DNA of 64,000 bases, taken from Flavobacteriales bacterium. GTDB taxonomy: Bacteria > Bacteroidota > Bacteroidia > Flavobacteriales_D > Sanyastnellaceae. Where the stretch lies: positions 1 through 64,000 of the forward strand of contig PKEB01000023.1 in assembly GCA_002863125.1 (NCBI GenBank), in the 5' to 3' direction. A program made the translations under genes and the position numbers. Position 1 is the stretch's first letter; every line of letters starts with the position of its first letter. Positions 36,797-41,604 of this stretch are shown piece after piece. Under the pieces are notes generated by a model that was not told where the DNA came from, did no database searches, and was given only the letters and a program-made list of their open reading frames with translations.

Positions 36797-36895
36797 GGCA
36801 AATCGTTTTAGATAGTTCAGACTATGCGAATGTCGTGCCAAACTTCGCATTAAATTTGTCCAGAGCCTGTTGCAGTGAAAATTTTACCAACATCT

Positions 36896-37432
36896 ATGCA
36901 GAAGCGGATTGCCCAGCGCATGCTTCGCTCTGCTTCTTCTCAAGAGCGGCCGAAGAAGGGGGTCAACCTGCGTGGGGCGAACCAAATCATCTTGGTCTAC
37001 ACCGAGACGGATGAACGAAAATTCAAGTTGGTCAAAGACATTGCCGTCTACCTCAAAAAGGAATACGACATCAAGCGAGTGATGCGCTTTGCCTACATCA
37101 CAGGAGATGAAAAGTCGATCCCAGCGTGGCACATGCGCAAGCTCGAATCTGATTTTTTCTGTGCATCCGACTTGAATTGGTACGACAAGCCCGTCAAACA
37201 TGTGGCTGCGCACATCAGTGAACCGTACGATGTACTTATCCAATTGGACCCGGATGAATCCATTGCCTTGGACTTTTTTGTAGCGGAGTCAAAAGCCAAA
37301 ATGAAGGTGGCCAATTTCTCAACCAACCGGCCACAGGACTTTGACATTCTCATTCCGCCACAAGCCAATGACACGTGGAAGCAACGGAATCACAGAATCA
37401 TTGAATTCATTGGAGACTCACCATTGACATGA
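36896..37432 (+). CDS. DUF6913-like protein
   Basis: 178-residue soluble protein with no signal. It has an alpha/beta pattern: a basic N-terminal helix, INQ-like strand NQIILVYTETDE, DIKRVMRFAYIT, DLNWYDKP, and YDVLIQLDPDESIALDFFVAESKAKMKV, ending FIEFIGDSP-like. This resembles the Bacteroidota family DUF6913, whose members often neighbour dapA, as here. I choose the ATG 36896; an in-frame GTG at 36875 is also possible. A TAAATTTG box (36851-36858) lies upstream. Its stop overlaps the dapA-like start (ATGA), so the two proteins are probably made together. Confidence 0.72.
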   Translation: MQKRIAQRMLRSASSQERPKKGVNLRGANQIILVYTETDERKFKLVKDIAVYLKKEYDIKRVMRFAYITGDEKSIPAWHMRKLESDFFCASDLNWYDKPVKHVAAHISEPYDVLIQLDPDESIALDFFVAESKAKMKVANFSTNRPQDFDILIPPQANDTWKQRNHRIIEFIGDSPLT

Positions 37433-38337
37433 ACAACGCGTTTCGACTTTCTGGGATGGGGGTGAACCTCGTCACGCCTTTCAATGCAGCCGGGGAAATT
37501 GATTTTCCTGCATTGGAGCGGCTGGTGCTCAAGATCAAGTCAACGCCCATCGAATTCATTGCCGTCAACGGCAGTGCCTCCGAAGCAGCCCTGCTCAGTC
37601 CAGAAGAGTGCCTGAGGAGCCTGGAATTCGTTGCTGAGATCAACAAAAACGAGAAGCCAATCATCGGCGGATTGCCCGGGGGAGACACGCGTTCGAGCGT
37701 TAGCCAGATCCTGTCATTTACCGAGCGAACGCCATGTGCCGCAATCCTTTGCCACGAGCCGTTGCCTCGGGCCCGCACCGCTTCAGGCTACTTGGGGCAC
37801 TTTCGCAGCCTCGCTCAAGCCTCTGCCTTGCCCATCATCATTGAACACAACCAGTCGTCCATTCCCGATGTTTCTGAGGCACTCGTCGAATTGGCGAGGG
37901 ATCCGAACGTATGCGGTATTGTGGATGCCACCGGCGATGTGGCGCTGAACGGCGAATTGATTCGCAACACCCCCGACAACTTCTTTGTGCTCACAAGCCG
38001 TGATGTGATGATGCTGCCGTTAATGGCCTTGGGTGTCGACGGCGCCGTATCAACCATTGCGAATGCTTTCCCTCAGGAATGCAGCGACATGATGGGGCAG
38101 ATGGCATTTGGAAACTTTCAAGACGCGCAAAAAACGCACCACTCCCTCGCACCACTGCTGAGAATTTTGGAGCTGGAAGGGGAGGCGTCTGGCATCAAAG
38201 CCATCCTGAATCACTTCCATTGGTTGGAAAATTTGGTACGTCTGCCGAACACGCCCGTATCTGAGGAGACCCGCACAGCCATTTACAATGAACTTGCCGC
38301 TCTTCCTCAGCAGATGGTTGAGAACGCGATGCAATAA
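37429..38337 (+). CDS. DapA-family protein lacking the catalytic lysine (probable pseudoenzyme)
   Basis: 302-residue TIM-barrel protein clearly related to 4-hydroxy-tetrahydrodipicolinate synthase: GMGVNLVTPFNAAGEIDF at the N-terminus, the family loop at ~47-57, PIIIEHN, GIVDATGD (~163-170), LPLMALGVDGAVSTIANAFP (~195), and LPNTPVSEETR near the end. However, the expected active-site residues are changed. Where DapA has Lys161 in GIKEATGD this protein has Val165; the Tyr133 position is Glu139; the Thr44-Thr45 pair is Ser49-Ala50; and the Arg138 position is Ser. Without the Schiff-base lysine it should not perform the DapA aldol reaction. It may be a regulatory or binding paralogue of the neighbouring DUF6913 protein. 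A true dapA would be expected elsewhere in the genome. Confidence 0.8.
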   Translation: MNNAFRLSGMGVNLVTPFNAAGEIDFPALERLVLKIKSTPIEFIAVNGSASEAALLSPEECLRSLEFVAEINKNEKPIIGGLPGGDTRSSVSQILSFTERTPCAAILCHEPLPRARTASGYLGHFRSLAQASALPIIIEHNQSSIPDVSEALVELARDPNVCGIVDATGDVALNGELIRNTPDNFFVLTSRDVMMLPLMALGVDGAVSTIANAFPQECSDMMGQMAFGNFQDAQKTHHSLAPLLRILELEGEASGIKAILNHFHWLENLVRLPNTPVSEETRTAIYNELAALPQQMVENAMQ

Positions 38338-38343
38338 CGCCGC

Positions 38344-39327
38344 TTACAGCGCCGCTGGAGCGGTACGCATCACATCCTCAACTTGCGCTTCAATGGCCTT
38401 GGCGTTCAAACCGTATTTCTCCATCAACTGAGCAGGCTTGCCGCTCTCGCCAAAGGAGTCCTCGACGGCCACTTGCCGCATTGGGGTAGGGCAATGCGCC
38501 GCCAAGAGCTGAGCGACCAACGCGCCGAGGCCACCGATTCGCTGGTGCTCTTCCGCAACAACAACACAGCCGGTTCGCTTTACCGAATCCAAGATGGTCT
38601 TGCCGTCCAGCGGCTTGATCGTGTGGACGTTGATTACCTCCGCGCGGATGCCACGTTCCAAAAGCGCCTGACTGGCGAGCATGGCTTCCCAAACCAGGTG
38701 GCCGGTCGCCACAATCGTGACATCGTTGCCTTCGGTCAAGACCTGCGCTTTCCCAATTTCAAAAGGGGCATCGGAACGCATGAACACGGGAACTTTCGGA
38801 CGTCCAAAACGCAGGTAAACCGGCCCTTCATGCTCGGCCACAGCAAGCGTGGCCTGGCGGGTCTGTTCAAAGTCCGCTGTGCAGATCACCGTCATGTGCG
38901 GCAGCATGGCCATCATGCCCATGTCCTCGAGGATCTGGTGCGTCGCACCGTCTTCACCTAGGGTTAAACCGGCATGCGAAGCGCAGATTTTGACGTTCTT
39001 TCCGGAGTAGGCAATGGATTGGCGAATTTGGTCGTAAACCCGTCCCGTGGAGAAATTCGCGAACGTGCCCGTGAAGGGGATTTTACCCCCAATGGTCATG
39101 CCCGCGGCTACCCCCATCATGTTGGCCTCTGCTATGCCCACCTGAAAGAAACGATCCGGAAAGGCTTTCTTAAATCCGCCCATTTTCAAGGACCCCGTCA
39201 AGTCGGCGCAAAGCCCGACGATGTTGTCATTGGCCTGACCTGCCTGCAACAGGCCTTCACCAAAGCCGCTGCGCGTGTCCTTGGATACCTCTGGGGTCAG
39301 GGTTTCGATGTAGCGTGAATTAACCAT
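38344..39327 (-). CDS. Transketolase C-terminal subunit
   Basis: 327-residue half of a split transketolase carrying the pyrimidine-binding and C-terminal domains. The thiamine-activating Glu lies in VGIAEANMMGVAAG (~65), followed by the GKIPFTGTFANFS and KICASHAGLTLGEDGATHQ blocks; the C-terminal domain shows VIATGHLVWEAM and VINVHTIKPLDG. The frame is open to 39540 but the ATG at 39327 (MVNSRYIETLTPE) is the proper start; it overlaps the end of the vWA gene by 8 bases, so it is translationally coupled to that gene rather than to the N-terminal subunit. Confidence 0.93.
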   Translation of the reverse strand: MVNSRYIETLTPEVSKDTRSGFGEGLLQAGQANDNIVGLCADLTGSLKMGGFKKAFPDRFFQVGIAEANMMGVAAGMTIGGKIPFTGTFANFSTGRVYDQIRQSIAYSGKNVKICASHAGLTLGEDGATHQILEDMGMMAMLPHMTVICTADFEQTRQATLAVAEHEGPVYLRFGRPKVPVFMRSDAPFEIGKAQVLTEGNDVTIVATGHLVWEAMLASQALLERGIRAEVINVHTIKPLDGKTILDSVKRTGCVVVAEEHQRIGGLGALVAQLLAAHCPTPMRQVAVEDSFGESGKPAQLMEKYGLNAKAIEAQVEDVMRTAPAAL

Positions 39328-40753
39328 TGAGTGAGAGATGTGTTGTGAATCCGGAACGAATGTTGATTGGTTTCGATTGTGAAAAGGCCATGGACCGCGC
39401 GGAACGCGAGCGGTACACAACCGTGTAGTTGCCCGGCTGCAAAAGGTAACGTCCAGACGGGTTTTGCGTCCCAACGTCCCACTTGTACACCACGAGGCCT
39501 TCTTCTGATAAAATGCTCCCGTAGCCAGCTGCTGCAGCATCCAGCTGGAGGTAGCCAGGCTGCGGAATGATCACCGGCGCTTCCTGATCCTCCTTTACTT
39601 CGATGCCCTCCAACCGCATGGGCGGGTAGGTGGGAAAGAAAACGTCGTACGTGCCGGTAAGCACCTTGAGGCGCTCATTGAGGCCGAGGGTGATGAGCGG
39701 TTCGGCTTCTCCCGGCCGATGAATGGCAACAGGCAAACCACCGTATGCGTTGCGTTCCCCTCGGGCAAACTGCGGGATGATTGTGCCTTGGCCGGCGTTT
39801 TCGAACCGAACATGGTTGTGCTTACGCGGTGTAAAGCGAACGCCATCACGCTCGAGGGGAGGAATGGTGTGCACCACAATTCGGTAAGTTGGGACAGGGT
39901 CCACGGGAATGGTATCCGTTTCTCCGAATGGCCCAAGGGTGTGAACGAAGCGTTCGAGTAGTTCGCCGGAATTCGAATCAAATAAACTCGTGGCCACATT
40001 GGTCACCGTGGCTTCTCCTTCACCATCGATCAAATCCACCTCGAAGGAGGTATCCAGCATCGCCTGCTCGATGACAATGTCCAACACCTCTTCAAACGTA
40101 GCAGGGTCTGCTGCGTCGAAGAAATTTCCAACGCAGCGGAACGTGTCTTTGTATTCTTCTTCCAATCCGATGCCAATGATGAACGGCTTGACGACAATGC
40201 CCTCCTCTTGAAGCATCCGCGAAACGGCACACGGATCTTCATCGCAGGCTTCGATGCCGTCGGTGATCAGCACAATCACCTTGCGTGCATCTTCAGCAGG
40301 AAAATCCGCTGCGGTGCGTTCCAACGACCGCGCGATGGGCGTGGTTCCGCGGGCTTGAATGCGACCGAGTGCCTTTTGAATCAACAGGTTGTTGCCCTCG
40401 GCAAGGGGTACCACCAATTCGGTGTCGTCACAATCCTGTTCTCCTTGAATGAATTTCGTTTGATGGCCATAAACGCGCAGACCCAGCTTTAACCCAGGGA
40501 TGCCGTACAAACTGGCAAGGGATTCGGAGAGGAGGGAAGTGGCGACCTCAATTTTGCGTTTGCCCTCCCAGAATGCATTCATGCTGTTGGACGCATCGAA
40601 GACAAACAAGATGTGTGTGTTCGCTTCGGCATCCCCTGAAGCATCGTCGCGCTGTGCGTGTACGGCACTGGTGGTCACAAGCAAGCACACCACAAGCGCC
40701 AATCGCCCGTAGACAATAGCGGCTTGCTGCTTTATCTGGTCGCCCGCTCGCAT
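39320..40753 (-). CDS. Exported von Willebrand factor A domain protein
   Basis: 477-residue secreted/periplasmic protein with signal peptide RLALVVCLLVTTSAVHAQ. The vWA domain (~45-225) has a complete MIDAS metal site: DASNSM, the Thr in GTTPIARSL, and Asp in VIVLITDGIEACDEDPC. The remaining ~250 residues contain repeated beta-rich units (for example around IEVKEDQEAPVIIP and LQPGNYTVVYRSRSARS) without a recognised name. No T9SS domain. The gene lies between the two transketolase subunit genes, 8 bases after the first and overlapping the second, so all three belong to one transcript. Confidence 0.85.
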   Translation of the reverse strand: MRAGDQIKQQAAIVYGRLALVVCLLVTTSAVHAQRDDASGDAEANTHILFVFDASNSMNAFWEGKRKIEVATSLLSESLASLYGIPGLKLGLRVYGHQTKFIQGEQDCDDTELVVPLAEGNNLLIQKALGRIQARGTTPIARSLERTAADFPAEDARKVIVLITDGIEACDEDPCAVSRMLQEEGIVVKPFIIGIGLEEEYKDTFRCVGNFFDAADPATFEEVLDIVIEQAMLDTSFEVDLIDGEGEATVTNVATSLFDSNSGELLERFVHTLGPFGETDTIPVDPVPTYRIVVHTIPPLERDGVRFTPRKHNHVRFENAGQGTIIPQFARGERNAYGGLPVAIHRPGEAEPLITLGLNERLKVLTGTYDVFFPTYPPMRLEGIEVKEDQEAPVIIPQPGYLQLDAAAAGYGSILSEEGLVVYKWDVGTQNPSGRYLLQPGNYTVVYRSRSARSMAFSQSKPINIRSGFTTHLSLNG

Positions 40754-40761
40754 CAGAAGAT

Positions 40762-41604
40762 TCAGTAATCTGCGTGGCTCGATTGCAATTGCGCCAAGGC
40801 GCTTTCCAGCTGGTCGTCATTGGGCGCTATGCCGTGCCATTCGTGCGTTCCTTCCATGAAGTCAACGCCTTTGCCCATTTCGGTTTTCATCAGCACGACG
40901 GTCGGACGGCCCGATCCACGGTTGGATTTGGCTTTCGCAATGGCGTTGCGAAGGGCGTCAAAATCGTGGCCATCGCAAGTCAACACATGCCAATTAAACG
41001 CAGCCCACTTGCCGGCCAAATCCCCCAGGTTCATGACGTCATCCGTTGAACCATCAATTTGCTGGCCGTTGCAATCGACAAAGCTGATCAAGTTGTCGAC
41101 GCCGTGGTGCGGGGCGTACATCGCTGCCTCCCAGATTTGCCCTTCTTGCAATTCACCATCCCCGTGCAACGAAAAGACCCAGGTGGACTCGCCGTTCAAT
41201 TTCTTCACCTGCGCCGCACCAATCGCCGCGCTCAATCCTTGGCCCAAAGACCCCGAGGCAATGCGAATCCCTGGCAAACCCTCTTCCGTTGCCGGATGGC
41301 CTTGCAACCGCGTGTTCAGCTTGCGGAACGTAGCGAGTTCCTCCACCGGGAAATACCCACGGCGGCTCAATACGGAATACCAGACCGGGCTGATGTGCCC
41401 GTTGGACAAAAAGAACAAATCTTCATCCGTGCCATTCATGTCGAATTGATCAGGATTCAATTGCATCTCTTCGAAGTAGAGCAGCGTCAACAGGTCGGCA
41501 CAACCCAAACTCCCACCGGGGTGACCAGATGCTGCACCGTGCACCATACGCACAATGTCGCGACGCACTTGCGTTGCCATTTGAATGAGGGCCTGATTTT
41601 CCAT
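40762..41604 (-). CDS. Transketolase N-terminal subunit
   Basis: 280-residue thiamine-diphosphate-binding half of transketolase, an enzyme of the pentose phosphate pathway. Signature pieces are GAASGHPGGSLGCADLLTLL (~25-43), GSLGQGLSAAIGAA (~115), and the ThDP motif HGDGELQEGQIWEAAMYA ending in the DCNGQQIDG block (~145-180). It starts the three-gene unit tkt(N)-vWA-tkt(C). Split transketolases are common in this phylum, but the halves are normally adjacent. Confidence 0.94.
   Translation of the reverse strand: MENQALIQMATQVRRDIVRMVHGAASGHPGGSLGCADLLTLLYFEEMQLNPDQFDMNGTDEDLFFLSNGHISPVWYSVLSRRGYFPVEELATFRKLNTRLQGHPATEEGLPGIRIASGSLGQGLSAAIGAAQVKKLNGESTWVFSLHGDGELQEGQIWEAAMYAPHHGVDNLISFVDCNGQQIDGSTDDVMNLGDLAGKWAAFNWHVLTCDGHDFDALRNAIAKAKSNRGSGRPTVVLMKTEMGKGVDFMEGTHEWHGIAPNDDQLESALAQLQSSHADY

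What the first reader, a model, noticed from the sequence alone, without database searches (positions are those of the whole stretch)
37429..38337. DapA homologue that has lost every catalytic residue I can locate
Alignment by eye to DapA landmarks puts Val165 at the Schiff-base Lys161, Glu139 at Tyr133, Ser49-Ala50 at Thr44-Thr45, and Ser at Arg138. The fold-defining motifs (MGVNLVTPF, DATGD, LPLMALGVDGAVSTIANAFP) are kept, and the gene is intact and coupled to a DUF6913 gene. This looks like a retained pseudoenzyme, either regulating lysine synthesis, binding a keto acid, or forming a complex with the DUF6913 protein.
Basis: partly seen in the sequence, partly recalled or inferred. Interest (0 to 1): 0.65.

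Follow-up and report, generated by a model that had tools for sequence, protein, structure and literature searches.

The report
DapA relative stripped of catalytic residues
In one lineage of marine Flavobacteriales the first enzyme of cell-wall diaminopimelate synthesis has lost all its catalytic residues and two later pathway enzymes are gone, yet the dead protein is kept under strong selection beside an unknown partner gene, so it probably has a second, non-enzymatic job and the cell wall must get its diamino acid another way.

Summary
Against E. coli DapA, K161→V165, Y133→E139, T44/T45→S49/A50, R138→S144, and also Y107→P113. The fold is DapA's (Z 31.8). It is not a one-genome oddity. All 20 DapA homologues read from this genus (19) and one sister genus (G029) have Val or Ile at 161 and form one clade (100/99). 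All 34 live relatives read have Lys.

The genome has no second DapA. The pathway itself is gone: DapB and DapD are found in 0 of 20 of these genomes, against 33/34 and 34/34 in the Lys-bearing ones. DapF with both cysteines, MurE with the DNPR motif, and MurI remain. The dead gene is not decaying: 20/20 frames are open and omega is 0.03-0.06, although it evolves about 2.7 times faster relative to MurE than live DapA.

Coupling to DUF6913 is an old, order-wide arrangement shared with live DapA. DUF6913's own rate is unchanged after DapA died.

My best reading is a retained pseudoenzyme: a non-catalytic TIM barrel working with DUF6913, kept after the diaminopimelate branch was lost. That part is inferred. 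What diamino acid fills the cell wall is open and testable.

The parts
37429..38337 (+). DapA-family (PF00701) homologue without catalytic residues, 302 aa
   Evidence: predicted fold matches solved DapA at Z 31.8
36875..37432 (+). DUF6913 (PF21857) gene, 185 aa, overlaps the dapA-like start codon by 4 bases
   Evidence: arrangement conserved in live and dead relatives
37573..37578 (+). codons Ser49-Ala50, at the place of E. coli Thr44-Thr45
37765..37767 (+). codon Pro113, at the place of E. coli Tyr107 (Pro in 19/19 of the genus)
37843..37845 (+). codon Glu139, at the place of E. coli Tyr133
37858..37860 (+). codon Ser144, at the place of E. coli Arg138
37921..37923 (+). codon Val165, at the place of the Schiff-base Lys161 (Val or Ile in 20/20 dead homologues)
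37999..38001 (+). codon Arg191, new conserved residue (18/19 of the genus; Asp187 in all live relatives aligned)

Best explanation
The gene is the vertically inherited dapA of this lineage, turned into a pseudoenzyme once, in the common ancestor of this genus and genus g9 (G029). Shown: it lacks the residues of the DapA Schiff-base mechanism (no Lys161, Tyr133, Tyr107, Thr45 or Arg138). The next step (DapB) and the DapD step of the diaminopimelate branch are absent from the same genomes, and the protein is still under strong purifying selection. Inferred: DapA had a second, non-catalytic role as a structural or ligand-binding partner of the protein of the coupled DUF6913 gene. When the lineage stopped making diaminopimelate, only that role was kept, so active-site constraint vanished while fold, gene pair and some surface and C-terminal helix positions stayed or became fixed. 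Also inferred: since MurE, MurI and DapF persist, peptidoglycan is still made, with a diamino acid that does not come from the DapA route.
For: Residue loss in 20/20 dead versus none in the 24 live homologues aligned. The dead set is one clade, 100/99; MurE agrees that G029 groups with the genus (96/95). PF00701 has one hit in a 98.7% complete genome. DapB and DapD are absent in all 22 genus genomes and G029 but present in 33/34 and 34/34 genomes whose DapA reads Lys. All 20 frames are intact and omega is 0.029-0.056 in pairs with usable dS. Column identity at six catalytic positions is 0.48 dead versus 0.99 live, while positions 221-240 and 281-300 rise from 0.37 to 0.60 and 0.22 to 0.63. DapA/MurE distance ratio is 3.41 dead versus 1.28 live, while DUF6913/MurE is unchanged (2.55 versus 2.41). 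DUF6913-dapA adjacency is kept in both groups. DapF cysteines, MurE DNPR and MurI are retained.
Against: No direct evidence of a DapA-DUF6913 interaction. The DUF6913 model was too poor to use (pLDDT 42.6) and no complex could be predicted. Conserved new polar residues in the former pocket (Glu52, Arg191, Asp192, Asp/Glu166) would also fit a new ligand or a new reaction. The genomes of the lineage are drafts, and the whole pattern is one evolutionary event, not independent replicates. PDB holds an E. coli K161A DapA (3i7q), so loss of the Lys alone would not prove zero activity.
Confidence: 0.5

Rival explanations
1. Neofunctionalised enzyme: the barrel has been rebuilt for another reaction or substrate that needs no Schiff base, with Arg191, Asp192, Glu52 and Asp/Glu166 lining the pocket.
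For: Arg191 replaces an invariant Asp in 18/19 of the genus; Glu52 and Asp192 are invariant and position 166 is always Asp or Glu.
Against: Positions 135-139 and 44 are almost free to vary (column identity 0.08-0.22), G029 does not share Arg191, and no catalytic set is recognisable.
Confidence: 0.25
2. Ligand sensor: the dead barrel binds a keto acid, lysine or another metabolite and regulates DUF6913 or amino-acid uptake.
Against: The lysine pathway it would regulate is not encoded; lysine-site positions are weakly conserved (0.35).
Confidence: 0.15
3. Still the working DapA: it makes HTPA by an altered mechanism, and DapB and DapD were replaced by unrelated enzymes.
For: It is the only DapA homologue, and DapF and MurE are kept.
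Against: The catalytic positions are lost in every species and one active-site loop is unconstrained. No DapL above cut-off. Several replacements would be needed together.
Confidence: 0.04
4. Decaying pseudogene on its way out.
For: Faster protein evolution than live DapA relative to MurE.
Against: 20/20 open frames, omega 0.03-0.06, conserved gene pair and conserved new residues.
Confidence: 0.04

Closest known systems
DapA, 4-hydroxy-tetrahydrodipicolinate synthase (TIGR00674, PF00701)
   Same: Fold, length, locus and descent; Thr11, Glu47, Gly165 and Asp188 kept; DUF6913 neighbour as in the order
   Different: No Lys161, Tyr133, Tyr107, Thr45 or Arg138; scores under the dapA cut-off; DapB and DapD partners missing
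Fusobacterium nucleatum cell wall (meso-lanthionine in place of DAP; PMC11602996, PMC9600241)
   Same: No DAP synthesis but a DapF homologue kept
   Different: Lanthionine not shown here; the only CBS/CysK-type enzyme in G000 is closest to cysteate synthase. In F. nucleatum the DapF homologue turned out to be a histidine racemase, and no dead DapA is described in the passages read
DUF6913 (PF21857)
   Same: The upstream partner gene is a member (64.8 bits, cut-off 27)
   Different: No function known; no paper found in the library

Membership tests
DapA (HTPA synthase) | Schiff-base Lys161 | tested here: not met
   Val165; Val or Ile in 20/20
DapA (HTPA synthase) | Catalytic triad Thr44, Tyr107, Tyr133 | tested here: not met
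   Ser49, Pro113, Glu139
DapA (HTPA synthase) | Arg138 that binds the second substrate | tested here: not met
   Ser144, variable across the clade
DapA (HTPA synthase) | Score above TIGR00674 cut-off | tested here: not met
   156.7 versus 206.15 bits
DapA (HTPA synthase) | DapB present to use the product | tested here: not met
   0/22 in the genus and absent in G029
DHDPS superfamily, PF00701 (fold and descent) | Score above gathering cut-off | tested here: met
   126.7 versus 22.1 bits
DHDPS superfamily, PF00701 (fold and descent) | DapA-type TIM barrel with C-terminal helices | tested here: met
   Model pLDDT 79.6; Z 31.8 over 280 residues at 2.2 A to 6mqh
DHDPS superfamily, PF00701 (fold and descent) | Tetramer assembly | not testable with these tools
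   Only monomer prediction available
Lanthionine-type peptidoglycan (Fusobacterium-like) | No DAP synthesis route | tested here: met
   DapB and DapD absent, DapA dead, no DapL above cut-off
Lanthionine-type peptidoglycan (Fusobacterium-like) | Dedicated lanthionine synthase | tested here: inconclusive
   One CBS-like protein, best model cysteate synthase, below every cut-off shown
Lanthionine-type peptidoglycan (Fusobacterium-like) | Lanthionine in the cell wall | not testable with these tools
   Needs chemistry

The most novel reading that the evidence does not exclude
A whole lineage of marine Flavobacteriales has stopped making diaminopimelate and builds peptidoglycan with another diamino diacid made in the cell, such as meso-lanthionine processed by the retained DapF and MurE, while the former DapA survives as a non-catalytic partner of DUF6913 and so exposes a second role of DapA that may exist across the order.
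Probability: 0.25. Interest if true: 0.82.

Novelty: new variant of a known kind. Interest (0 to 1): 0.62.

Why it matters
DapA is a textbook Schiff-base enzyme and an antibiotic target. A natural clade in which its whole active site is gone but the protein is still selected for is a ready-made separation-of-function set: whatever it does is very unlikely to be HTPA synthesis. Because DUF6913 sits with dapA across the order, the result may point to a second role of DapA in ordinary flavobacteria. The co-loss of DapB and DapD with DapF and MurE kept also makes a sharp, checkable prediction about cell-wall chemistry in these bacteria.

Tried and rejected
A second, Lys-bearing DapA elsewhere: none in this genome. 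In G009 a second PF00701 hit has a Lys but is only a remote relative of this DapA (22.5 bits by phmmer), probably another aldolase. Chance or misalignment: rejected by the clade-wide alignment. DUF6913 coupling as special to the dead form: rejected. DapF kept to supply D-glutamate, as in Chlamydia (PMC5885031, abstract only): made unlikely because MurI is above cut-off in all 60 genomes. Muropeptide salvage by Mpl: no hit over cut-off in any of 16 genomes, live or dead, so it does not discriminate. CBS as a lanthionine synthase: not supported as specific, since relatives have a homologue and the best model is cysteate synthase. DapL bypass: only generic aminotransferase scores. DUF6913 structure: model too poor to search. 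G033 as a genome without dapA: not claimed, because its DUF6913 lies at a contig edge and the next gene is off the contig.

Full report
Observation. The frame at 37429-38337 is intact and encodes a 302-residue DHDPS-family protein. Its only PF00701 place in the genome is this one; the genome is 2.27 Mb in 35 contigs, 98.7% complete. Aligned with E. coli K-12 DapA (fetched) and 43 relatives, it has Val165 at Lys161, Glu139 at Tyr133, Ser49-Ala50 at Thr44-Thr45, Ser144 at Arg138 and Pro113 at Tyr107. The predicted monomer (pLDDT 79.6) matches solved DapA structures over nearly its whole length, Z 31.8, 2.2 A over 280 residues. It falls below the curated dapA cut-off (156.7 versus 206.15 bits).

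It is a lineage trait. Of 60 genomes searched (this one, 21 others of its genus, 15 of other genera of its family, 23 of its order), 20 hold a homologue with Val or Ile at position 161: 19 of the 22 genus members and G029 of another genus. The other three genus members (G004, G013, G017) had no hit, and they also lack DUF6913, which suggests missing contigs. All 34 homologues read from the remaining genomes keep the Lys. The dead proteins form one clade (100/99). A MurE tree puts this genus, G029 and G033 together (96/95), with the Lys-bearing G023 and G034 as neighbours. One loss event is therefore the simplest reading. Named records with close relatives of the gene include MAGs called Flavobacteriales bacterium UBA6969 and Crocinitomicaceae bacterium MED692.

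The pathway is gone. DapB and DapD are absent from all 22 genus genomes and from G029. Among the 34 genomes with a read Lys-bearing DapA, DapB is found in 33 (missing in G059, 85% complete) and DapD in 34. A DapL-type bypass is not seen above cut-off in any genome. LysA over its cut-off is missing in this genus and also in most of the family, so in these relatives the diaminopimelate branch probably served only the cell wall, and loss of lysine synthesis probably came first (inference). MurE with the DNPR motif is kept, DapF is kept with both catalytic cysteines and the surrounding motifs, and MurI is present everywhere. So the machinery that uses a diamino acid remains while the route that makes diaminopimelate does not.

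The gene is not decaying. All 20 dead frames are open. omega is 0.029-0.056 in the five pairs with usable synonymous distances. Constraint has moved: column identity at six catalytic positions fell from 0.99 to 0.48, the loop 135-139 is nearly free, while the C-terminal helices and several other positions became fixed. Relative to MurE, dead DapA evolves 2.7 times faster than live DapA (ratio 3.41 versus 1.28), but DUF6913 keeps its pace (2.55 versus 2.41). Because the genus is a shallower sample than the order, the equal mean column identity (0.56 versus 0.53) itself reflects relaxation of DapA and should not be read as equal constraint.

The neighbour. DUF6913 overlaps the start of the dead dapA by four bases and lies directly upstream of dapA in most loci read, live and dead alike (DUF6913 present in 56 of 60 genomes). 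The pairing is therefore ancestral. Its survival after catalysis and pathway were lost, with DUF6913's rate unchanged, is the main reason to think that the pair shares a role that never depended on DapA's reaction. That step is inference. Gene order around the pair is also shared between the window and G029 (transketolase halves, VWA protein, DUF6913, dapA, MsrA, DUF5723).

Cell wall. If diaminopimelate is not made, position 3 of the stem peptide must be filled by salvage or by another diacid. Fusobacterium nucleatum lacks diaminopimelate synthesis and uses lanthionine made by a CysK-type synthase that is essential unless lanthionine is fed (PMC9600241; PMC11602996). DapF of Anabaena and Arabidopsis epimerises lanthionine (PMC12039745). 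These make replacement plausible here, but no dedicated synthase was identified: the only CBS/CysK-type enzyme of this genome is nearest to cysteate synthase. DapF in Fusobacterium turned out to be a histidine racemase, which warns against reading function from its retention.

Verdict. As an HTPA synthase the protein is very probably dead (established knowledge of the DapA mechanism plus the tested residues; PMC11201819, describes the Thr44/Thr45, Tyr133 and Arg138 contacts). Its positive role, partner of DUF6913, is the best guess at about even odds.

Noticed in passing
L076:5784-7871 (G000:C19, - strand): DapF is fused in one frame to an Lnb-type membrane protein (DAP_epimerase + Lnb_N + 5TMH_Lnb). 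Frames of similar length (about 700 aa) carry DapF in other genus members and in G029, G023 and G034.
   Followed up: partly
L104:1390-2455 (G000:C12): The only CBS/CysK-type enzyme of this genome is closest to cysteate synthase of sulfonolipid synthesis (471 bits, cut-off 600) and lacks the C-terminal region seen in the longer homologues of G022 and G031.
   Followed up: partly
family f1 genomes: LysA over its cut-off is missing from most of the family even where DapA, DapB and DapD are present, suggesting widespread lysine auxotrophy with diaminopimelate kept only for the cell wall.
   Followed up: no
window 38344-39540 and 40762-41604, - strand: Transketolase is split into two genes that flank a VWA-domain gene (39320-40753); the same order is seen in G029.
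   Followed up: no
L044 and L045 (G014): G014 has two near-identical dead dapA copies at two contig ends, probably strain variants from assembly rather than a duplication.
   Followed up: no
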